Shown: in pieces, positions 3,331 to 35,709 of the stretch | How the letters are laid out: each line of letters opens with the position of its first letter | Position numbering within the stretch: the first letter of the stretch is position 1 | Origin: Martinezella tropici | GTDB lineage: Bacteria > Pseudomonadota > Alphaproteobacteria > Rhizobiales > Rhizobiaceae | NCBI RefSeq assembly: GCF_008370325.1 | Contig: NZ_VNIP01000003.1 | Coordinates: 372,001 to 436,000 of the forward strand | DNA: 64,000 nt | Reading direction: 5' to 3' | The notes under the pieces: generated by a model | Told to the model about the DNA's origin: nothing | Databases searched by the model: none | What the model saw: only the letters and a program-made list of their open reading frames with translations | Made by a program: the position numbers and the translations under genes

Positions 3331-4866
3331 ATGACCACAGTCCTTCAACGCCCTAGAGCGGACGCACCAGCCGCGAACAATCAGGCCATTCTGGAGATGC
3401 GCGGCATTTCCCAGATCTTTCCCGGCGTCAAGGCGCTGGATGGCGTCAGCATTTCGCTTTATCCCGGCAAGGTCACCGCCCTTATCGGCGAAAACGGCGC
3501 GGGAAAATCGACCCTCGTCAAGATCCTGACCGGCATCTACCGTCCGAATGAGGGCGAAATCCTCGTCGACGGCAAGCTGACAGCCTTTCATCACGCGCAG
3601 GCGGCCATCGACGCCGGCGTCACGGCCATCCATCAGGAAACCGTGCTCTTCGACGAACTGACCGTCGCCGAAAACATTTTTCTCGGTCATGCGCCGCGCA
3701 CGTCCTGGCGCACCATCGACTGGAAGACGATGAACAGCCGGTCGAGACAGCTCCTCGAATCGCTGGAAAGCGCCATCGATCCCGCAACCAGACTGAAGGA
3801 CCTCTCCATTGCGCAGCGCCATCTCGTCGCGATCGCGCGCGCTTTGTCGATCGAAGCCCGCATCGTCATCATGGATGAGCCGACCGCCGCCCTATCGCGC
3901 AAGGAGATCGACGATCTCTTCCGCATCGTCGAAGGGCTGAAAGCAAAGGGCAAAGCGATCCTGTTCATCAGCCACAAATTCGACGAGCTCTATGAAATCG
4001 CCGACAATTTCGTCGTCTTCCGCGACGGCCGCGCCGTCGGCCATGGCGATCTGAAAGCGACGCCGCAGGATGAGATCGTGCGCATGATGGTCGGACGCGA
4101 CGTCAAGGACGCCTTTCCGAAAGTGCCCGTCACGATCGGCGCAACTGTCCTCGAGGTCGACAAATACTGTCACCGCACGGAATTCCGCGACATTTCCTTC
4201 AAGCTCAGGCGCGGCGAGATCCTCGGCGTTTACGGCCTGATCGGCGCCGGACGCTCCGAGCTTTGCCAATCGCTGTTCGGCATCACCAGGCCGCTCTCCG
4301 GGCGGCTGACGCTCGACGGACAGGAAATCCACGTGCGCTCGCCGCAGGATGCCATTGCCGCCGGCATCGTCTATGTGCCGGAAGAGCGTGGCCGCCACGG
4401 TCTGGCGCTGCCGATGCCGATCTATCAGAACATGTCGCTTCCTTCGCTCGGGCGCACCTCGCGCAAGGGCTTCCTGAAGGTGGCCAACGAATTTGCTCTC
4501 GCCCGCAAATATGCCGAACGGCTCGATCTGCGCGCCGCTGCCCTGTCCGTGCCGGTCGGCACGCTCTCCGGCGGCAACCAGCAGAAGGTGGTCATCGGCA
4601 AGTGGCTCGCGACGCAGCCGAAGATCATCATTCTGGACGAGCCCACCAAGGGTATCGATATCGGTTCCAAGGCGGCCGTGCACGGTTTCATCAGCGAACT
4701 GGCGGCCGAAGGCCTCAGCATCATCATGATCTCCTCGGAACTGCCCGAGATTCTCGGCATGGCAGATCGTGTGCTGGTCATGAAGGAAGGCCTCTCCGCA
4801 GGCCTGTTCGAGCGCGAGGGGCTGACGCCGGAAACGTTGGTGCGCGCCGCCACGGGCAACGCATGA
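3331..4866 (+). CDS. rhaT: RhaT, rhamnose ABC transporter ATPase (two nucleotide-binding domains)
   Basis: This 511-residue tandem ATPase is of the RbsA/MglA type. The first domain has an intact Walker A, GENGAGKS at residues 53-60, and a Walker B in VIMDEPTAALS. The second domain has the degenerate loop GLIGAGRSE expected in this class but a good signature TLSGGNQQK and Walker B IILDEPTKG. It energises rhamnose uptake at the inner face of the membrane with RhaP and RhaQ. The start is ATG at 3331 without a strong ribosome site. It is unrelated to the E. coli proton symporter also called RhaT. A strong hairpin separates it from rhaP. Confidence 0.92.
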   Translation: MTTVLQRPRADAPAANNQAILEMRGISQIFPGVKALDGVSISLYPGKVTALIGENGAGKSTLVKILTGIYRPNEGEILVDGKLTAFHHAQAAIDAGVTAIHQETVLFDELTVAENIFLGHAPRTSWRTIDWKTMNSRSRQLLESLESAIDPATRLKDLSIAQRHLVAIARALSIEARIVIMDEPTAALSRKEIDDLFRIVEGLKAKGKAILFISHKFDELYEIADNFVVFRDGRAVGHGDLKATPQDEIVRMMVGRDVKDAFPKVPVTIGATVLEVDKYCHRTEFRDISFKLRRGEILGVYGLIGAGRSELCQSLFGITRPLSGRLTLDGQEIHVRSPQDAIAAGIVYVPEERGRHGLALPMPIYQNMSLPSLGRTSRKGFLKVANEFALARKYAERLDLRAAALSVPVGTLSGGNQQKVVIGKWLATQPKIIILDEPTKGIDIGSKAAVHGFISELAAEGLSIIMISSELPEILGMADRVLVMKEGLSAGLFEREGLTPETLVRAATGNA

Positions 4867-4917
4867 GCGTTCTGGCTTTTCTTCGATCAGCCAGAACGCT
4901 TTCTCTGTTTGTTTTTG
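4866..4917 (+). terminator. Strong hairpin with T-rich tail between rhaT and rhaP
   Basis: A perfect 12-bp stem AGCGTTCTGGCT (4866-4877) pairs with AGCCAGAACGCT (4889-4900), followed by a T-rich stretch to 4917. It starts at the last base of the rhaT stop codon and sits inside a 111-bp gap before rhaP. It resembles a rho-independent terminator in mid-operon, so it may be a partial terminator or attenuator. Confidence 0.65.
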
Positions 4918-4977
4918 CCGCATTTATGCGGCGCCGGGTGAGGATACCTGGCTGCAAAATGCTCTAGGGAGGACGGG

Positions 4978-5982
4978 ATGCCACGCATCCTCAAAAAGCG
5001 CGAAACACTGCTCGCCATCATTATCGCGGTGATGATCGCCGGTTTCGCAACGCGCGCGGCCGGCTTTGCCGAGCCCGCCAATCTCGCCAATATCTTCAAC
5101 GACACATCGATCCTCATCATCCTGGCCCTTGCCCAGATGACGGTCATCCTGACGAAATCGATCGATCTGTCCGTCGCCGCGAACCTGGCACTGACGGGTA
5201 TGGCAGTCGCCATGCTGAACGCCGCCTATCCCGATATTCCCTTGATCGCGCTTGTCTTCATGGCGATCCTGATGGGTGCGGTTCTCGGTGCCATCAACGG
5301 CTATCTCGTCTGGGCGCTCGAAATCCCGCCGATCGTCGTCACGCTCGGCACCCTGACGATCTATCGCGGTATGGCTTTCGTGCTGTCGGGCGGCGCCTGG
5401 GTCAATGCGCATCAGTTCACGCCGGTCTTCCTGAACGTGCCGCGCACGCAGCTTCTCGGCCTGCCTGTGCTTGCCTGGATCGGCATCGCGATCGTGCTGA
5501 TGATGTATCTGGTGCTGCGCTATACGCAGTTCGGCCGCTCGGCCTATGCGAGCGGCGGTAATCCGGTGGCCGCCGTCTATGCCGGCATCGATGTCGGCTG
5601 GACGCGCTTCCTCGCCTTCGTTCTTTCCGGCGCGCTTGCCGGTCTCAGCGGCTATCTCTGGGTTTCGCGTTATGCCGTTGCCTATGTCGATATCGCGAAC
5701 GGCTTCGAGCTCGATAGCGTGGCAGCATGCGTCATCGGCGGCATTTCGATTGCCGGCGGAGTCGGTTCGGTGGCAGGCGCCGTCCTAGGCGCCCTCTTCC
5801 TCGGCGTCATCAAGAATGCGCTACCGGTCATCGGCATCTCGCCGTTCACGCAGATGGCGATCTCGGGCACCGTCATCATCCTTGCGGTCGTCTTCAACGC
5901 CCGGCGCGAACGCAACCGCGGCCGCATCATCCTTCGGGATCAGGCCGCAAAAGACACCGCCAGTGAGGGAGCACACGCATGA
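4978..5982 (+). CDS. rhaP: RhaP, rhamnose ABC transporter permease
   Basis: This 334-residue polytopic membrane protein of the RbsC/AraH permease family (BPD_transp_2) has about eight to ten hydrophobic segments spread over the whole length and a basic C-terminus. The conserved GxVNGxxV-type loop appears as GAINGYLVWALEIPPIVVTLGT. The start is the ATG at 4978 preceded by AGGGAGGA. Its ATGA stop/start overlap with rhaQ implies translational coupling, and the two permeases probably form the heteromeric channel for rhamnose. Confidence 0.92.
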   Translation: MPRILKKRETLLAIIIAVMIAGFATRAAGFAEPANLANIFNDTSILIILALAQMTVILTKSIDLSVAANLALTGMAVAMLNAAYPDIPLIALVFMAILMGAVLGAINGYLVWALEIPPIVVTLGTLTIYRGMAFVLSGGAWVNAHQFTPVFLNVPRTQLLGLPVLAWIGIAIVLMMYLVLRYTQFGRSAYASGGNPVAAVYAGIDVGWTRFLAFVLSGALAGLSGYLWVSRYAVAYVDIANGFELDSVAACVIGGISIAGGVGSVAGAVLGALFLGVIKNALPVIGISPFTQMAISGTVIILAVVFNARRERNRGRIILRDQAAKDTASEGAHA

Positions 5983-6995
5983 GCAACGGTTCGCAAGCGG
6001 CGACGGCGGAAAAGCGCGTCATTCCGGATCGCCTCGGCACTCCTTTCAAGCGCATCTTGTCGAGCTGGGAAACACTGCTCTTCGGCGTTGCGGTCGCGAT
6101 CTTCATCTTCAATTCGCTGGCCTCGCCCTATTTCCTCGATCCCTATAACCTCTCCGATGCGACTTTCAACTTCACCGAAAAGGCGATGATCGCCTTTGCC
6201 ATGGCGCTACTCGTCATCGCGGGCGAAATCGACCTTTCGGTCGCAGCCATCATTGCGCTCTCCTCGACGGCAATGGGGGCTGCCGCGCAAGTGGGCGTCG
6301 ACACGCCCGGCCTTGTCGCCATCGGCCTCGGCGTCGGCCTCGTCTGTGGCATCTTCAACGGCTTCCTGGTTTCAGTACTGAAGCTGCCGTCGATTGTCGT
6401 CACTATCGGTACGATGAGCCTGTTTCGCGGCATTTCCTATATCGTTCTCGGCGACCAGGCCTATGGCAACTATCCGGATAGCTTCGCCTATTTCGGCCAG
6501 GGCTATGTCGTCTGGGTTTTCTCGTTCGAATTCGTGCTGTTCATCGTGCTAGCAATCGCCTTTGCGATCCTGCTGCATGCGACGAATTTCGGCCGGCAGG
6601 TCTATACGATCGGCAACAATGATTTCGCGGCGCGCTTCTCCGGCATTCCGGTCGAGCGGGTGAAATTCATTCTCTTCCTGCTGACCGGCATCATGAGCGG
6701 CATTGCCGCCGTCTGCCTCACCTCGCGCCTCGGCTCCACGCGCCCCTCGATCGCGCTTGGATGGGAACTGGAAGTGGTCACCATGGTCGTGCTCGGCGGG
6801 GTATCGATCCTCGGCGGCTCTGGGACGATCGTCGGCGTCGTCATCGCCGCCTTCGTGATGGGCCTCGTCACCTTCGGCCTTGGTCTGCTCAACGTTCCAG
6901 GCATCGTCATGTCGATCTTCATCGGCCTTCTTCTTATCATCACCATCGCGCTGCCGATCGTCGCCCGGCGCATCAAGACCATGAGTTCCAAATGA
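5979..6995 (+). CDS. rhaQ: RhaQ, rhamnose ABC transporter permease
   Basis: This 338-residue permease of the same BPD_transp_2 family as RhaP has multiple transmembrane segments from about residue 30 onward and the equivalent loop [22 protein letters not shown]. It overlaps the end of rhaP by four bases and its stop codon overlaps the start of rhaU by four, so the three are tightly coupled. It is the second half of the channel in the inner membrane. RhaQ begins with a longer polar N-terminus of about 27 residues. Confidence 0.92.
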
Positions 6996-7318
6996 CAGCC
7001 GCCCTCGAACGCCATGCCTTCAAGATGACGCTCAATCCCGGCATGGAAGCCGAATACAGGAAGCGGCATGACGAAATCTGGCCCGAGCTTGTCGACCTGC
7101 TGCATCAGGCTGGTGTCAGCGATTATTCCATCCATCTCGACCGCGAGACGAATACGCTCTTCGGTGTACTGACGCGGCCGAAGGATCATTCCATGGCGAG
7201 CCTGCCAGAGCATCCCGTCATGAAGAAATGGTGGGCGCACATGGCCGACATCATGGCGACCAATCCCGACAATTCGCCCGTTCAGAGCGAGCTCGTCACG
7301 GTCTTTCATCTGCCATGA
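6992..7318 (+). CDS. rhaU: RhaU, L-rhamnose mutarotase
   Basis: This 108-residue cytosolic enzyme of the RhaM/RhaU family interconverts the alpha and beta anomers of L-rhamnose so that the kinase and isomerase get the form they need. Tyr22 and His26 in [10 protein letters not shown] correspond to the active-site pair known from E. coli RhaM, and Trp80-Trp81 match the conserved aromatic wall. The length is that of the family. It overlaps rhaQ and rhaK by four bases each, so it is translated as part of the operon. Confidence 0.92.
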
Positions 7319-8697
7319 ACAACGAGGCAGCCTATCGTCATATCGCGGTCATCGATATCGGCAAGACCAACGCCAAAGTCGTTGTGCTCGATGCAGAGAC
7401 GGGTGCCGAGATTGCCACCATCAAGACTGCGAACAGCGTTTTGAAATCAGGCCCCTACCCGCACTACGATATCGAAGGACTGTGGGATTTCATCATCTCG
7501 GCCCTCAAGAGCTTTGCCGCCACGCCGGGGTTCGACGCCATATCGATCACCACGCACGGCGCATCCGCCGTGATGCTGGCGGCAGATGGCAGCCTTGCCA
7601 TGCCGGTTCTAGACTACGAGCACGGTTATCCCCAAGCCGTTCAGAATGCCTATGCTCAATTGCGGCCGGACTTTAGCGAGACATTTTCGCCCGGGCTGTC
7701 GGTCGGGCTTAATGTCGGCGCGCAGATCCATTATCTGAAAAGCACATTTCCCGCCGATTTCGCCCATGTCGCCACGATCCTGACCTATCCGCAATATTGG
7801 GCCTTCCGCCTGAGCGGTGTCGCGGCCAATGAGGTGACGTCGCTTGGCTGCCACACAGATCTCTGGAACCCAACCACGCAAAGCTACTCTTCTCTGGTCG
7901 ACACGCTTGGCATCCGCGCGCTGATGGCACCGGTTCGTTCGGCTTTCGACGCGCTCGGGCCGGTCTTGCCGCCGCTTGCCGCCGAGATTGGGCAGGCAAA
8001 GGCGGTGCCCGTCTATTGCGGCATCCATGACTCCAACGCCTCGTTATTGCCGCATCTGGTCGAGAACGAAGCCCCCTTTGCGGTCGTCTCGACGGGAACT
8101 TGGGTCATCAGCTTCGGCGTTGGTGGAGATCTGGACCATCTCGATCCCAAACGAGATGCGCTTGCCAATGTCGACGCCTATGGCCGCGCCGTGCCATCGG
8201 CGCGGTTCATGGGCGGCCGTGAGTTCGAGATCCTCCTGACCGAAATCGGCACTGCGCCGGCCAATGCCGTCGAGGGCGCCCTTGAAACGGTGGTCGAGAA
8301 AGGCCTCATGCTACTGCCCAATGTGGTCGAGGGCTCCGGTCCGTTTCCGGGCAGAAAAATGCGATGGATCGGCAACGCGACTGGTTCCGCCGAGCGGCTC
8401 GCAGCCGCCAGCCTTTATCTTGCGCTGATGACGGAGGCCTGCCTCGATCTGATCGGCGCCAAGGGACCGATCTTCGTCGAAGGTCCGTGCGCGCTCAATC
8501 GCGCCTATCTCGTCGCACTGGCTGCAGTAACCGGCAAGAACGTCATTGCTTTGCCGGGTTCGACTGGAACAAGCCAGGGAGCGGCCCTGCTGACGGGAAT
8601 TCGCCCACCTGTCGCCATGAAAAATGTGCCGATCCGCGCGGATTTGCGGGGATTACGACACTATAGGCAGGCCTGGCACGGCGCTTTGGGCGGTTAG
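7315..8697 (+). CDS. rhaK: RhaK, rhamnose/rhamnulose kinase (FGGY family)
   Basis: This 460-residue FGGY carbohydrate kinase has the N-terminal phosphate-binding segment [15 protein letters not shown], followed by TTHGASAVM and a C-terminal ATPase segment with [12 protein letters not shown]. The start is the ATG at 7315 inside the rhaU stop; longer upstream frames run through rhaU. It phosphorylates rhamnulose in the cytosol and closes the operon. In R. leguminosarum the kinase activity is reported to be needed for transport through the ABC system as well as for catabolism, which fits its place in the transport operon rather than beside rhaD and rhaI. Confidence 0.9.
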
Positions 8698-31481: not shown

Positions 31482-31966
31482 ACCGTGTCCTCGTCCTTGA
31501 CTATGGACTTGTACAGGTTTTCCATTCAATTGCGCAACCAAAGGTTTTCCTCAAAGGATTAGCCGCGGGCTCTACCACGGAAAAGAAGGGCGTCTCACCG
31601 GCCAGCCGTGTTGTCGTTGAGGATAGCATGCAGGTTCTAGAATCTATCGGAGGTAGTCGCTGCGCCCCGGCCAGCGATCACGTCGCCGGTCGCTCGTTTT
31701 GGCACACGCCGGGCGACAAATCTCAAGGAGAAACGATCGGTTCCAGACCCAGATATCCTCTTCCATCCGGCACCCCATCGTGGATTTTGCATCGATAAGA
31801 ACGCTCACAGGCGAATGCCGAGTTTTCCCGCATGCCGCGTGAGAAGAAGGCGGCCGTTCTTTTGGATTTGCCGCCCAATAACCATAAGCATCATCTAATA
31901 TATGATATCTCTAAAATTCCCTATGGCTGCTTTGTTCCAACAAAGCAAACATAGGGAGACTTTATA
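31482..31966. other. 485-bp intergenic region before the XRE gene
   Basis: No gene is seen. The segment 31870-31966 is AT-rich and contains a long palindrome immediately before the XRE start, described separately. The 11-mer CATCATCTAAT at 31889-31899 recurs in inverted form just after the XRE gene at 32365-32375. Confidence 0.5.
31921..31954. promoter_or_regulatory. Long palindromic operator before the XRE gene
   Basis: The core TGCTTTGTTCCAACAAAGCA (31928-31947) has perfect 9-bp arms. It is enclosed after 2-bp gaps by CTATG (31921-31925) and CATAG (31950-31954), which also pair, giving 14 of 17 symmetric positions over 34 bp. It lies 12 bp before the GTG start and overlaps the ribosome site, so autoregulation by the XRE protein is likely. 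Confidence 0.7.
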
Positions 31967-32365
31967 GTGGCTCACGATCCAGCCCGCGGCAAACGCGTTC
32001 GAGAGGCTATATCTCGGCGTCAGATCCGGAAAGTACACGCGCTCGCCGCCGAACTAAATGTGTCCGTTGCCGCCGTCTCGCGTTGGCAGAATGGCGGCCA
32101 TACCTCATTGGAAAGTGCTTGTGCGCTTGCCCAACTGCTGGATGTCTCTCTCGATTGGTTGCTACTTGGGCGCGGTACGATGGAGTGGCACAGGGACAGC
32201 ACAATTTCCCAGACTGAGCTTCAATGGGTGCTCGCGCTCCGCAGCCGGTCCACGATGATACAGGCGGGCTTCATCAATCTGCTTCAAGCCATCCCACCAG
32301 AACAGCCTTACGCTGAGCGCAATTGTGCCCGCATTTTCACCTTCCGCTCAACAGCTTCAGGTTGA
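31967..32365 (+). CDS. XRE-family helix-turn-helix regulator
   Basis: This 132-residue regulator has an N-terminal Cro/CI-type helix-turn-helix: RKVHALAAELNVSVAAVSRW and then GGHTSLESACALAQLLDVSLDWLLLGRG, the standard five-helix ending. The C-terminal 60 residues carry no domain that I recognise and are rich in Gln/Arg (ELQWVLALRSRSTMIQAGFINLLQA), possibly for dimerisation. It starts with GTG at 31967, preceded by AGGGAGA. It lies directly upstream of four unrecognised genes on the same strand and is their probable regulator. The large palindrome at 31921-31954 is its likely operator. Confidence 0.82.
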   Translation: MAHDPARGKRVREAISRRQIRKVHALAAELNVSVAAVSRWQNGGHTSLESACALAQLLDVSLDWLLLGRGTMEWHRDSTISQTELQWVLALRSRSTMIQAGFINLLQAIPPEQPYAERNCARIFTFRSTASG

Positions 32366-32500
32366 TTAGATGATGAATATATAAGACATTTCTAATTAGG
32401 GTTTCAAACACAGCACCGGATGATCGGACGGAAAGCGTATTCGGCTTGTGCCGCGGGAGAGACCCTTTGCTTCACTCTCAACGCAAAAGGATTGTTGACC

Positions 32501-33166
32501 ATGTCTACATTGCTGACCATCAACGTGAAGAACTACCAGCCGCAGACACAGAGCTTCTACTTCTTCCAGCAGCCGGCTATCTATACCGGCGGCGGGCAGG
32601 TCTACTCGAACAGCCTTTATTCGCAATCTCTCGGCAACTACGATGCAACCGGCGCGATCCTGACCTTCCAGGTCAATCTGCAATATTATGCCGGCATCCA
32701 GCAGGCGAACACGCCACCGCAGGTTGGTCAATCCTCGGGCTTCGCCTCCGCCAGCCGCGCAATCGACCTTGCCGGCGCCGGCAGCGGCGCGCCGAACGAC
32801 TGGACGACCGCGACAGTTTCGCCGCTCGGCCTTTCCGCACCGATCAACGGCCAGGGCGTACAACCAGGCGCTTTCCGCATCACGACACCGAGCTTCACCT
32901 CGCCGCCCTATTACAATGTCGGCTCGGCGATCGCCGTCAACGGTGGCATCGTGCTCTCCAACTTCGTGCAGGCAAACCCGATGAACAACATCGATTGCCA
33001 GCCCATCCTCAAATACTTTGTCCAGACGGGGGCCTATACGCCGGGCAACGTCATGAACTTCTCGCAGTCCAGCGTGAACGCCGCCCTCTCCGATTTTACC
33101 GGCGGCTACACCATCTGCAACGTCAGCCTGCAAGCCAACGGCAACTGGAGCACCCAGCTCCAGTAA
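32501..33166 (+). CDS. Unrecognised Gln/Asn/Ser/Tyr-rich protein, paralogue 1
   Basis: The 221-residue protein is of unusual composition: no Glu and no His, only two Lys, two Arg and five Asp, and many Gln, Asn, Ser, Tyr, Gly and Pro. That suggests an all-beta, surface or structural protein, yet no signal peptide is present. It is clearly paralogous to the gene at 33310: both have an early FYxFQ segment, an NYDxxGA block before YYAG/IYAG, a central LSPLG block, a PGAF/VGAF block and a late DFT-G segment before the C-terminus. I cannot assign a family. The start is the ATG at 32501; a longer frame from 32420 lacks a ribosome site. Confidence 0.72.
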   Translation: MSTLLTINVKNYQPQTQSFYFFQQPAIYTGGGQVYSNSLYSQSLGNYDATGAILTFQVNLQYYAGIQQANTPPQVGQSSGFASASRAIDLAGAGSGAPNDWTTATVSPLGLSAPINGQGVQPGAFRITTPSFTSPPYYNVGSAIAVNGGIVLSNFVQANPMNNIDCQPILKYFVQTGAYTPGNVMNFSQSSVNAALSDFTGGYTICNVSLQANGNWSTQLQ

Positions 33167-33180
33167 GCCCGGAGCGGCCG

Positions 33181-33262
33181 TGCGGGTGGAGAACCGCGCC
33201 TCCTCACCTTCACCCGCATGCGCCTGCCATCTGATGTTCGCCGCCAGCCAAGGCGGCGAACA
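33181..33262. other. Two nested intergenic hairpins between the paralogues
   Basis: TGCGGGTG (33181-33188) pairs with CACCCGCA (33211-33218), and TGTTCGCCGCC (33235-33245) pairs perfectly over 11 bp with GGCGGCGAACA (33252-33262) around the loop AGCCAA. No T-tract follows, so these look like mRNA stabilisers or partial terminators. Confidence 0.55.
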
Positions 33263-33309
33263 ACCTGAACCCAAATGGCCTGAAGCTTAAACGGGATTGT
33301 GGGAACATC

Positions 33310-34029
33310 ATGAGCAGTTCGTCCTACCAAATCGTCGTTCGGAATCTCTCGCAGACGGCGCAGTATTTCTACGTCTTTCAGAAAAGAGCCGTGTTCGAGC
33401 CGTCCGCGGGTACCATCTACTGCTCTAGCCTCGGCTGCCAATATGTCAGCAATTACGACAACTCGGGCGCGCAGATAATCTTCGGCCTGGATAGACAAAT
33501 CTACGCGGGCGCGATCAGCACTGCAGTGTCGCCGCCGCCACCGCCGCTGCCTACCGCATCGAACGCGTCCGGAACTTTGCGGCTCCTGGTCAGCAAGGCG
33601 ACCGCAAAAAAAGCAATCTCGCTGACGACTGACACAGGCAACAATCCGCCGACCAATTTTACGGAATTGACGCTCAGTCCGCTGGGGTTTTCGCCGCCCA
33701 CCTATCAATCGGGGATCTCGGTTGGAGCTTTTGGCGTCAAGGTGCCGCCCTATACGCCGGCTCCGTATCCCGAGCTCTTTTGCGGCGTCGCTGCATTGTA
33801 CACAGGCGAGAGCGTTGTCCTATCGAGCTTCGTGGCGCCCGTGCCCAACGCCGTGATGAGTTGCGCGCCGGCGCAAGTCTTCTTCGTCAAGACAGGCTAT
33901 CAGCCTATCGCGAGCCTCCTGGCCTATGACGAGAGCAACTCGGCGCGATGTGATTTCACTGCCGGCTTCGCCACGATCACCGCCACCTACAATTCAAACG
34001 GGACGTTTTCAACGACCGGTGGACCATAG
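33310..34029 (+). CDS. Unrecognised protein, paralogue 2
   Basis: This 239-residue paralogue of the 32501 gene aligns over nearly the whole length: QYFYVFQKRAVF against SFYFFQQPAIY, NYDNSGAQIIF against NYDATGAILTF, TLSPLGFSPP against TVSPLGLSAP, VGAFGVKVPPYT against PGAFRITTPSFT, and CDFTAGFATI against SDFTGGYTIC. It has more charged residues than paralogue 1, a central proline run PPPPPL near residue 80, and four cysteines. No signal peptide and no transmembrane segment are seen. The start is the ATG at 33310. Two divergent copies next to each other point to an old duplication and distinct roles. Confidence 0.74.
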   Translation: MSSSSYQIVVRNLSQTAQYFYVFQKRAVFEPSAGTIYCSSLGCQYVSNYDNSGAQIIFGLDRQIYAGAISTAVSPPPPPLPTASNASGTLRLLVSKATAKKAISLTTDTGNNPPTNFTELTLSPLGFSPPTYQSGISVGAFGVKVPPYTPAPYPELFCGVAALYTGESVVLSSFVAPVPNAVMSCAPAQVFFVKTGYQPIASLLAYDESNSARCDFTAGFATITATYNSNGTFSTTGGP

Positions 34030-34288
34030 GCCGAAGCTAGCCGGTTTGTCGGGAACGACTGAACGAGGCGCAAACTGCTTGCGCAAGACCACGGCGCGAG
34101 GCGCTGCCCCGCCGTTTGCCTGAATGCCCCGAGGCTGCCTACGGGCACCTCCCTGAACACTCACAGACACGGCGGACGGCACGAATTCGCTCACCGCCAT
34201 ACCAGGTCCGGCGGCGCGCGCTGTCGGTCAGCGCTCCCCGCATGCGGTGGGGAACGCTCATCTCCTCCTAGCGAAAAGGAAAACCGTC

Positions 34289-34834
34289 ATGCAAAATACC
34301 AAACTACGCAGCCGCATCCTCGCCGCAACGCTCACCGCCCTCGTTGCGCTTGGCGCAACAAGCTCGGCGCATGCCTATTCCATCTATCGCAGTGTCACGG
34401 CCGATGCCGCAACGGGAATTGTCGTTTGGACAGCGGTCAACTTTGGCGTCAGTGGAAATCCGCCGACGTTGTCGTTCTACTATTATCCTAATGATGCGGC
34501 CGCCCTGCTTGCGATGCCGGGCGCCCAATGCTTCGTCAAGGTGGACCTCGGCAATCTTGTCAATCCTCCGCCCGGCACCCAGATTCCAATCGGAAACGGT
34601 ATCCAGTTCAATGCGAATGCCGCCGATAATCCCAGGCCCTTCCCCTGGAATGTTGTCTTCGACAATGTACAACCCGGCCATTGGAGCATCGCAAAGACAG
34701 AGATCCAAAACCCGACATCGTCCAATAACGCGGCAAGCCGCGTGGCGGCGGTAGCCTTCCAGGCCCTTGCCACGACGGCCGGCTCTGGGACCACCGTCGT
34801 CAATGGACAATTGACCAATTGCGCTGCCCAATAG
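34289..34834 (+). CDS. Secreted protein of unknown function
   Basis: This 181-residue protein has a clear Sec signal peptide (basic MQNTKLRSR, hydrophobic ILAATLTALVALGA, cleavage after AHA near residue 29). The mature part is Asn-, Pro- and Ala-rich with two cysteines (Cys74 region AQCFVKVDLG and the C-terminal NCAAQ) that could form a disulphide. AAAAGGA lies eight bases before the ATG. I do not recognise a domain. Its place after the two paralogues suggests a joint exported or surface structure, but no secretion genes are next to it. Confidence 0.75.
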   Translation: MQNTKLRSRILAATLTALVALGATSSAHAYSIYRSVTADAATGIVVWTAVNFGVSGNPPTLSFYYYPNDAAALLAMPGAQCFVKVDLGNLVNPPPGTQIPIGNGIQFNANAADNPRPFPWNVVFDNVQPGHWSIAKTEIQNPTSSNNAASRVAAVAFQALATTAGSGTTVVNGQLTNCAAQ

Positions 34835-34880
34835 ACTTTCCGTGAGAAGGCCCTAATGTTTAAAAACGCAATGATTTTCA

Positions 34881-34914
34881 CCGCCGGTCTTCTTAAAAGT
34901 CCGGCGGCTTTTTC
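34881..34914 (+). terminator. Terminator-like hairpin after the secreted protein gene
   Basis: CCGCCGG (34881-34887) pairs with CCGGCGG (34901-34907) and is followed by CTTTTT. It lies 46 bp after the stop codon and only 16 bp before the next start, so it may attenuate expression of the fourth gene. Confidence 0.6.
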
Positions 34915-34929
34915 ACGGGAGAATTCGAC

Positions 34930-35574
34930 ATGGCAGTGCTTCATCACGCGTTTCGCTGTGCCGTCACGCCAGGCTTCGAACGGACGGTTCTCGACCTATT
35001 GGCAGCATGGGAATCCGCTGACCGGGAAAGACTTTCCACCATGGCGGTTAGCCGTTACGCCGAGCTCGCACAGCGCGAAGATATTAACTCCGCCTTTTAT
35101 CTCGGCCCGGACGGTGCTGCGTCGTCCTGGCTGCAGCCTGGATTCATCAGCCCCGGGCTTGCCGCCCTGGTGACGCTTGCCAAGGACTTCGTTCCAGTGC
35201 CTACCTTGAGCGCCAGCGACGATACGAACCACCATCGGCTGGCAACGCATTTGCCGGCGCTTGGCTGGTCGGCTGACGAGATCGACTTTCTCATCCATGG
35301 GCAGCCTATTGAAACGATGCTTCAGCCTTATGCCAGCTCCACCGATCAATTGAAGGAGGGTAAATTCCGCCACACGGGCGGCTGGACGCCTCCCGGCATG
35401 ACACGAAAGCTGAGGGAGAGCATCGACCGCTTGATCCTTGCTCCGCCTTCGCAGGCCGACGAGGCGGTATGGGCGTGGAACCTACTGAATGAAAGCAAGG
35501 CTCTGGACGATGCGCGTGCAATGCTAGCCCCGCTGAACGACGATGACTGGCTCATATTGTCCATTACTCATTGA
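34930..35574 (+). CDS. Unrecognised cytosolic protein
   Basis: This 214-residue protein has no signal peptide or membrane segment, is moderately acidic, and is predicted to be largely helical (GFERTVLDLLAAWESADRERLSTMAVSRY and LRESIDRLILAPPSQADEAVWAWNLLNES as examples). The N-terminus MAVLHHAFRCAVTPGFE follows GGGAGA at good spacing. I do not recognise a family. It is the fourth gene of the XRE-linked group and is separated from the third by a terminator-like hairpin. Confidence 0.68.
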   Translation: MAVLHHAFRCAVTPGFERTVLDLLAAWESADRERLSTMAVSRYAELAQREDINSAFYLGPDGAASSWLQPGFISPGLAALVTLAKDFVPVPTLSASDDTNHHRLATHLPALGWSADEIDFLIHGQPIETMLQPYASSTDQLKEGKFRHTGGWTPPGMTRKLRESIDRLILAPPSQADEAVWAWNLLNESKALDDARAMLAPLNDDDWLILSITH

Positions 35575-35709
35575 AAACATGCGTGAATGGCGATGCGAGC
35601 CTTGAGGCGAAGTTTCGAACGGGAGCTGAACCATAGCTGAGCGGAAATCGTAAGCGCCGATGCATGCCGTCCGCTCAACGAATACTCGCAGATTCAACCG
35701 CTGTTGCGA

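What the first reader, a model, noticed from the sequence alone, without database searches (positions are those of the whole stretch)
31921..35574. XRE-controlled cluster of four unrecognised proteins, two of them paralogues
An XRE gene with a large palindromic operator is followed on the same strand by two paralogous proteins, a Sec-secreted protein and a helical cytosolic protein. None shows a domain I recognise. Paralogue 1 has no Glu and no His and only nine charged residues in 221, which is extreme for a bacterial cytosolic protein and typical of surface or structural proteins, yet it has no signal peptide. Intergenic hairpins separate the genes and suggest staged expression. The set could be a secreted fibre, lectin-like or toxin-like module, or a developmental coat. 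This is my leading candidate for an undescribed system.
Basis: partly seen in the sequence, partly recalled or inferred. Interest (0 to 1): 0.72.

Follow-up and report, generated by a model that had tools for sequence, protein, structure and literature searches.

The report
RhiA-family gene cassette in Rhizobium
The cluster is a movable set of genes built around two distant relatives of RhiA, a protein that root-nodule bacteria make around plant roots and whose job is still unknown, and it shows that RhiA belongs to a wider family of swappable gene sets.

Summary
In detail: an XRE gene with a 40-base palindrome, two paralogues, a Sec-secreted protein and a cytosolic protein, one strand, 31918-35574. 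Apart from XRE none has a significant match in Pfam, NCBIfam or PHROGs. But the paralogues are not without kin: they are distant members of the RhiA family (Rhizobium leguminosarum rhiABC, function unknown). A RhiA model run over the whole own genome at E <= 1 finds exactly three places: the two window paralogues and a third copy elsewhere. Profile comparison agrees and beats every shuffle. Context agrees independently: the secreted protein's homologue lies near a rhiA homologue in 10 of 10 plasmid records that carry it. XRE-P1-P2 recurs in other Rhizobiales; the pair is ancient, often on plasmids, and in Rhizobium johnstonii 3841 lies between fixABCX and fixNOQP. A covarying RNA hairpin follows P1. 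The genes form interchangeable cassettes: RhiA-like protein or pair, usually a small exported protein, swapped regulators. What the cassette does is not shown; my best guess is a cytosolic binding protein plus an exported partner used against or with eukaryotes. New variant of a known but unsolved kind.

The parts
31918..31957 (+). Near-perfect palindrome (19-nt arms) overlapping the likely ribosome-binding site of the XRE gene; putative operator and/or RBS-masking hairpin
   Evidence: RNA fold z -6.1 in the window and -5.8 in L004, between -2.8 and +1.2 in the other 11 loci folded
31967..32365 (+). XRE (Phage_CI_repr / HTH_3) regulator, 132 aa
   Evidence: Pfam PF07022 E 5.6e-9; upstream of P1 on the same strand in 15 of 21 named loci, in one of them (L022) 0.9 kb away
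32366..32500 (+). Leader between XRE and P1 with an inverted repeat AGGGTTTC...GAGACCCT seen by eye; no consensus structure found by RNAalifold
   Evidence: 0 pairs predicted; single folds
32501..33166 (+). P1: RhiA-family protein, 221 aa, no signal peptide, all-beta apart from two short helices
   Evidence: AlphaFold2 mean pLDDT 91.2
33179..33220 (+). Conserved RNA hairpin just after the P1 stop codon
   Evidence: 13 pairs, 96.4% of cells paired, 5 pairs with changes on both sides, 11 sequences
33235..33262 (+). Second hairpin (11-nt arms), weaker conservation
   Evidence: helix 2, 74.8% of cells paired, 2 pairs with changes on both sides
33310..34029 (+). P2: second RhiA-family protein, 239 aa, no signal peptide
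   Evidence: sister group of P1
34289..34834 (+). SEC: small exported protein, 181 aa; signal peptide about residues 1-29 (34289-34375, read by eye), mature part begins YSIYRS
   Evidence: home-made signal-peptide test
34881..34907 (+). Hairpin between SEC and HEL
   Evidence: 11-nt arms, 91% complementary; conservation not tested
34930..35574 (+). HEL: mostly helical cytosolic protein, 214 aa, no known family
   Evidence: AlphaFold2 mean pLDDT 72.3 from 4 sequences

Best explanation
The cluster is a Rhi-type cassette: a tandem pair of RhiA-family beta proteins (P1, P2) with an XRE regulator, followed by a small exported protein (SEC) and a helical cytosolic protein (HEL). Shown by computation: homology of P1 and P2 to RhiA, the old P1/P2 duplication, the recurrent linkage, purifying selection, the covarying hairpin after P1. 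Inferred: XRE represses its own promoter and the cassette until a signal arrives; P1 is the main product and P2 a minor partner, perhaps as a hetero-oligomer; P1/P2 stay in the cytosol, as RhiA does; SEC acts outside the inner membrane; together they serve contact with eukaryotes (plant, alga, insect or grazer), most likely as a binding (lectin-like) protein stored in the cell and released on lysis, with the exported protein as its partner. Identity as a RhiA-family cassette: about 0.9. Mode of action: about 0.3.
For: RhiA model (A4) on the own genome at E <= 1: three matches, the three P1/P2-type genes and nothing else (E 4.6e-5, 0.038, 0.07). On 398 phylum genomes 6 hit at E <= 0.001: the own genome and G297 through P1-type genes, G526 and G469 through intermediates, G334 and G509 through nearer RhiA relatives. 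hhalign P1-RhiA score 60 against at most 27 in 100 column shuffles, P2-RhiA 53 against 23, intermediates-RhiA 82 against 26.5; SEC and HEL profiles as negatives score below 17. Tree: P1, P2, RhiA and intermediates fall into four groups. P2 follows P1 in 18 of 21 named loci, XRE precedes it in 15 of 21; in the genus 28 of 148 genomes have the family, 25 of the 28 with P1 and P2 as neighbours (my reading). SEC: 10 of 10 plasmid records with a homologue have a RhiA homologue within about 2.5 kb on the same strand; HEL: 5 of 6. A second exported family (L005_C) is shared by Rhizobium P1-P2 loci and a Pantoea locus with two RhiA-like genes (40% over 102 residues). dN/dS against L004: P1 0.03, XRE 0.09, P2, SEC, HEL 0.17-0.22. 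P1 CAI 0.653, above 38 of 41 background ORFs; other cluster genes 0.35-0.45. RhiA is a highly expressed cytoplasmic protein not detected in the supernatant (PMC2275737, passages); rhiABC is induced in three rhizospheres (PMC3333776, passages).
Against: The RhiA model's E-values for the two window genes are weak (0.038 and 0.07); the link leans on profiles, intermediates and gene context. The fold of RhiA was not predicted, so a shared fold is untested. The window cluster lacks a RhiB (Collar) gene and a LuxR regulator. No third exported gene in 3 of 18 P1-P2 loci (L007, L014, L022), and an interrupted one in 3 more (L011-L013). Solo P1 genes exist (L018-L020, own third copy). Codon adaptation is a poor marker: RhiA of 3841, described as highly expressed, has CAI 0.36, and P1 of pRL10 and the own third copy rank only 23 and 20 of 41. 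The palindrome is not conserved, so XRE control is unproven. P1 has a non-significant PHROGs match to a virion structural protein (E 0.026). Nothing here tests binding, toxicity or a eukaryotic target. [quoted passage not shown]
Confidence: 0.55

Rival explanations
1. Intracellular storage or crystalline inclusion protein: P1 (low charge, rich in Asn/Gln) packs in the cytosol as a nitrogen store or inclusion, P2 and HEL help assembly.
For: P1 has 9 charged residues in 221, 20 N and 22 Q; P1 looks well expressed by codon use; weak profile similarity to a polyhedrin, E 0.56, not significant.
Against: Does not explain the exported partner found in 15 of 18 P1-P2 loci (3 of the 15 interrupted); no hit to an inclusion body family; RhiA served as a marker of the cytoplasm in PMC2275737.
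Confidence: 0.2
2. Small-molecule sensor or buffer: RhiA-family proteins bind a plant or quorum signal in the cytosol and the exported protein is a periplasmic partner; regulators differ because each host senses its own signal.
For: Regulators swap: XRE here, a CRP-like gene with a convergent cyclase-domain gene in Agrobacterium and a CRP-like gene in G629, LuxR-type and response regulators in Azotobacter, a response regulator at the own third copy (read by eye), LuxR-type by the rhi operon.
Against: No ligand pocket was analysed; the fold searches gave no binding family.
Confidence: 0.2
3. Phage-derived or tailocin-like fibre module.
For: XRE is CI-like; RhiB of the rhi operon has a phage tail collar domain; P1 has a weak, non-significant PHROGs match to a virion structural protein (E 0.026).
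Against: No match of P1 or P2 in 50,697 phage records, no relative among 86 candidate stretches of viral contigs, no BFVD fold match at E <= 0.001.
Confidence: 0.05
4. Toxin-antitoxin or immunity cassette, with XRE as antitoxin and HEL as immunity protein for exported SEC.
For: XRE upstream of a small operon; HEL lies next to SEC in the window and in the 8 other loci that hold it; HEL and SEC evolve faster than P1.
Against: HEL has no signal peptide while SEC is exported; SEC occurs without HEL (L043, L047) and a partial HEL in R. lusitanum without SEC or RhiA in the record; no PADLOC scan was made.
Confidence: 0.1

Closest known systems
RhiA of Rhizobium leguminosarum / R. johnstonii (rhiABC, pRL100169-171)
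   Same: Homologous by profile over nearly full length, no signal peptide, low charge (10.8% in RhiA, 4.1% in P1), followed by further genes the last of which (RhiC) has a leader that looks exported, plasmid-borne in Rhizobium
   Different: 20% identity in the profile alignment; tandem pair P1-P2; XRE instead of RhiR; no RhiB (collar) gene; SEC does not match RhiC by BLAST
Second RhiA lineage (NXC24, Vaf10, 11515TR, NZLR24, Ciceribacter)
   Same: Same SEC protein (44-74% identity) and, in three of the five loci, same HEL (53-70%) in the same order
   Different: RhiA (in two loci with a second RhiA-like gene) in place of P1/P2, an extra upstream gene (X) in four of the five, and a longer helix-turn-helix regulator in the three annotated ones
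P1-P2 pair of R. johnstonii 3841 pRL10 (RL_RS28385, RL_RS28390)
   Same: 82% and 57% identity, tandem order
   Different: No XRE gene found within 6 kb; lies between fixABCX-nifA-nifB and fixNOQP; third gene is the L005_C type, interrupted
Phaeobacter and Parasedimentitalea plasmid loci
   Same: P1 70%, P2 35-36%, tandem order, exported third protein
   Different: Third protein of another family (Pha_C); no XRE gene found within 6 kb

Membership tests
RhiA protein family | Sequence homology to RhiA | tested here: met
   single-sequence E-values of the window genes weak
RhiA protein family | No export signal (cytoplasmic protein) | tested here: met
   P1 and P2 start with MSTLLTINV and MSSSSYQIV, no hydrophobic leader (read by eye); location itself not tested
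RhiA protein family | Same three-dimensional fold | not tested
   P1 modelled; RhiA not modelled, the two prediction jobs went to P1 and HEL
rhiABC operon | RhiB homologue with phage tail collar domain | tested here: not met
   No Collar hit in the five window proteins; RhiB of 3841 scores E 1.6e-14
rhiABC operon | LuxR-type regulator RhiR beside the operon | tested here: not met
   The regulator in the window cluster is XRE; in 3841 a LuxR gene lies next to rhiC
rhiABC operon | Small exported protein after the RhiA gene(s) | tested here: met
   SEC with signal peptide (home-made test); no match to RhiC by BLAST
AidA/PixA inclusion body family (family recalled, no call names it) | Match to its Pfam model | tested here: not met
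   No such hit for P1 or P2 at E <= 10 or for the 30 members of A1 at E <= 1
Phage tail or fibre protein | Homologue in phage genomes or PHROGs | tested here: not met
   PHROGs only E 0.026 and 0.075
Known lectin fold | Structural match to a solved lectin | tested here: inconclusive
   best VIA-align Z 4.9, 2.9 A over 86 residues (PepT2 domain), no Foldseek match at E <= 0.001

The most novel reading that the evidence does not exclude
RhiA, P1 and P2 define a wide, mobile family of bacterial cassettes in which a cytosolic beta-sandwich-like protein, perhaps of a fold not yet solved, is paired with interchangeable exported proteins and interchangeable regulators, and used as a released binding or antifeedant weapon at contact with plants, algae, insects or grazers; the copy between fixABCX and fixNOQP would give it a place in symbiosis.
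Probability: 0.2. Interest if true: 0.75.

Novelty: new variant of a known kind. Interest (0 to 1): 0.5.

Why it matters
RhiA has been described as a highly expressed protein of unknown function (PMC2275737). Linking it to a larger family, with recurring partners and swappable regulators, and to a pair inside the nif-fix region of a model strain, gives several new handles (conserved residues, partner genes, hosts from Serratia to Phaeobacter) by which its function can be tested directly.

Tried and rejected
Family libraries gave nothing significant for P1, P2, SEC, HEL: Pfam, NCBIfam, PHROGs. PDB sequence search with profiles of P1/P2, HEL, SEC and RhiA: best E 0.56, none, none, 0.11. Fold searches of P1 (PDB, VIA-align, BFVD) and HEL (model pLDDT only 72) gave no Foldseek match at E <= 0.001; this proves no new fold. 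Rfam: nothing at E <= 1 over 31800-35700. RNAalifold on the XRE-P1 leader predicted no pairs, so the repeat seen there is left as an observation.

Terminator reading of the intergenic hairpins rejected (not above shuffles); a processing or stabilising hairpin after P1 is favoured by covariation. In that call's shuffle control over both helices the measure 'further pair types' was reached by 389 of 500 shuffles and 'pairs with a change on both sides' by 13 of 500, the other three by 0 or 1; the control does not keep relatedness.

Nitrogen-fixation context for this strain: a search of the own genome with the Fer4_NifH model found four short matches of 36-40 positions, best E 3.2e-6, and rings in all 14 control genomes too, so it gives no sign of a nif region; the genome is 95% complete. 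The position between fix genes on pRL10 is not a feature of the window.

Dropped rows: P2 of L023 and L012 are interrupted and were left out of alignments A1 and A6 and of the tree; dN/dS values of P2 against L023 cross the interruption and are not used. Counts 'of 21' use the named loci only, a scan by short peptides that finds close relatives. Alignment A10 and its pair count use the window and 10 of the 18 named P1-P2 loci; L007, L009, L012, L013, L016, L017, L022 and L023 were not given; L016 and L023 fold into hairpins of other sequence. The tree uses a selection of 40 proteins and the program warns of long branches.

Literature: search listings, and passages only in PMC2275737, PMC4949626 (a reference list), PMC13133039, PMC3333776, PMC6969944, PMC4149787, PMC5977203; Cubo 1992 (PMC206112) is not held and is known here only through these. 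pRL100201/100202 as old names of P1/P2 on pRL10 are my guess from the numbering; a search for them found 0 papers.
Full report
What is there. On the + strand lie XRE (31967-32365), P1 (32501-33166), P2 (33310-34029), SEC (34289-34834) and HEL (34930-35574). P1 and P2 are paralogues with 31% identity. P1 has no Glu, no His and 9 charged residues in 221. The palindrome in front of XRE has 19-base arms (31918-31936, 31939-31957), occurs once in the window and in none of 100 shuffles, and overlaps the likely ribosome-binding site. It is kept in L004 but not clearly in the other 11 loci folded, so it may be an operator or an RNA hairpin, and its role is unproven.

No known family at first sight. 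Pfam, NCBIfam and PHROGs recognise only XRE; the nearest for P1 is a virion structural family at E 0.026, not significant. The P1 model is confident (mean pLDDT 91.2, nearly all beta), yet no solved or viral structure matches it well (best VIA-align Z 4.9, 2.9 A over 86 residues).

Relatives. One scan of the species genomes by short peptides gave 21 loci with P1 relatives. P2 follows in 18 of 21, XRE precedes in 15 of 21 (in L022 0.9 kb away), SEC plus HEL follow in 3 of 21. In PLSDB 101 of 72,556 plasmid records carry P1/P2-type genes: Rhizobium 45, Serratia 29, Phaeobacter 21, Agrobacterium 3, three others; 79 of the 101 are typed conjugative. In the genus 28 of 148 genomes have the family, 25 of the 28 with P1 and P2 as neighbours (my reading; in one of the 25, G629, a further gene lies between them, in another, G599, P2 is in pieces); G646, G660 and G663 have P1 alone or with a distant fragment. 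In an even sample of the order 1 of 199, the own genome, with P1 as a single query; of the phylum 4 of 398 with the profile. A third P1 copy lies on contig C31 of the own genome, beside what reads as a response regulator and a long sensor-like protein. One genome of the genus holds P1 at the coordinates of pRL10 (G572), so the window is taken to be Rhizobium. On pRL10 of R. johnstonii 3841 P1-P2 lie between fixABCX-nifA-nifB and fixNOQP.

The link to RhiA. SEC homologues on plasmids led to it: NXC24 carries 'protein rhiA' directly before the SEC homologue. All 10 plasmid records with a SEC homologue also carry a RhiA homologue within about 2.5 kb on the same strand, RhiA homologues being found in 46 records in all; so do 5 of the 6 with HEL (R. 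lusitanum is the exception). A second exported family, L005_C, present in 11 of 21 loci (three of them interrupted), has its homologue after two RhiA-like genes in Pantoea (40% over 102 residues). Sequence then confirmed it: hhalign gives P1-RhiA 95.0% probability over 196 columns, P2-RhiA 92.9%; two intermediates from distant genomes match both sides (97.6% to RhiA; 96.7% to P1/P2). Against 100 column shuffles each, real scores (60, 53, 79, 56, 82) exceed the shuffled maxima (20 to 27); the unrelated profiles of HEL and SEC score below 17. A RhiA model searched through the whole own genome at E <= 1 returns three places, exactly the three P1/P2-type genes, though two of them only at E 0.038 and 0.07. 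The tree separates P1, P2, RhiA and the intermediates; P1 and P2 each contain Rhizobium, Methylobacterium, Phaeobacter-group and Agrobacterium members, so the duplication is old and the pair was inherited or moved together (P1 group support 88/80, below the starred level; long branches warned of).

Modularity. Read together, searches show one or two RhiA-family genes, then in most cases a small exported protein. Of the 18 P1-P2 loci, 15 have one (3 SEC, 11 L005_C of which 3 interrupted, 1 other; L007, L014 and L022 none, with a home-made signal-peptide test). The third-slot families (SEC, L005_C, Pha_C, At_C, RhiC) do not match each other by BLAST at E 0.01. Regulators differ: XRE (Rhizobium, Methylobacterium, Pararhizobium at 40%, and a 35% relative between two intermediate copies in G526), a CRP-like gene (Agrobacterium, G629), LuxR-type and response regulators (Azotobacter), LuxR (3841 rhi operon). 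In Serratia and Azotobacter P1 carries about 90 further residues.

Expression signs. P1 evolves slowly (dN/dS 0.03 against L004; XRE 0.09; P2, SEC, HEL 0.17-0.22). Its codon adaptation (0.653) exceeds 38 of 41 background ORFs of the window, while the other cluster genes exceed 1 to 8 of 41. The control fails: RhiA of 3841, described as highly expressed, has only 0.36; and P1 of pRL10 and the own third copy exceed only 23 and 20 of 41. So codon use is a hint, not a proof. Right after P1 a 13-pair hairpin is kept in 11 aligned sequences, 96.4% of cells paired, 5 pairs changed on both sides; with no terminator-like T-run it is more likely a stabilising or processing element that sets P1 above P2.

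How it may work. RhiA is described as a highly expressed cytoplasmic protein of unknown function, not detected in the supernatant (PMC2275737, passages); rhiABC is induced in pea, alfalfa and sugar beet rhizospheres (PMC3333776, passages), under RhiR control (PMC4149787, PMC5977203, passages). PMC13133039 reports no Pfam domain in RhiA and RhiC (passages). [quoted passage not shown] By homology and partners I infer that P1/P2 are cytosolic, that XRE keeps the cassette off until a signal, and that SEC works outside the inner membrane. A role at contact with eukaryotes fits the hosts (plants, marine aquaculture and algae; insect-associated Serratia from recollection), but no call tests it. Rivals: storage or inclusion protein, ligand buffer, toxin-immunity set; the phage-fibre reading is made unlikely.

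Novelty. In the listings and passages seen I saw no description of P1/P2 or of their link to RhiA; the library lacks most subscription papers. I rate it a new variant of a known, functionally unsolved kind.

Noticed in passing
L085 (G526) 3916-7147: Two distant RhiA-like copies flank an XRE gene (35% to the window's) and are followed by a protein with a DUF4347 domain (E 5.2e-10).
   Followed up: partly
L086 (G469) 4162-5363: A distant RhiA-like gene is followed by a protein with a putative adhesin Stv domain (E 1.4e-12).
   Followed up: partly
L030 5090-11141; L087 2226-8445: CRP-like regulator, P1, a small gene (its leader looks exported in L030), P2 and, convergent, a long protein, in L030 annotated with an adenylate/guanylate cyclase domain, in L087 presumed alike: perhaps a cAMP-type version of the cassette.
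   Followed up: no
L028 7001-7945; L029 6989-7939: P1 domain followed by about 90 extra C-terminal residues on Serratia and Azotobacter plasmids; the Serratia copy read lies among conjugation genes.
   Followed up: no
L011, L012, L013 about 7582-7979; L023 6794-7491: Interrupted third-slot or P2 genes: the cassette decays in some lineages while P1 stays intact.
   Followed up: no
L040 3883-6648: Strain Vaf10, reported to lack rhi genes in its Sym cluster (PMC6969944, passage), carries a second RhiA lineage with SEC and HEL on another plasmid.
   Followed up: partly
L047 4001-7857: A RhiA-SEC cassette lies shortly before a DarT ADP-ribosyltransferase and macro-domain pair.
   Followed up: no
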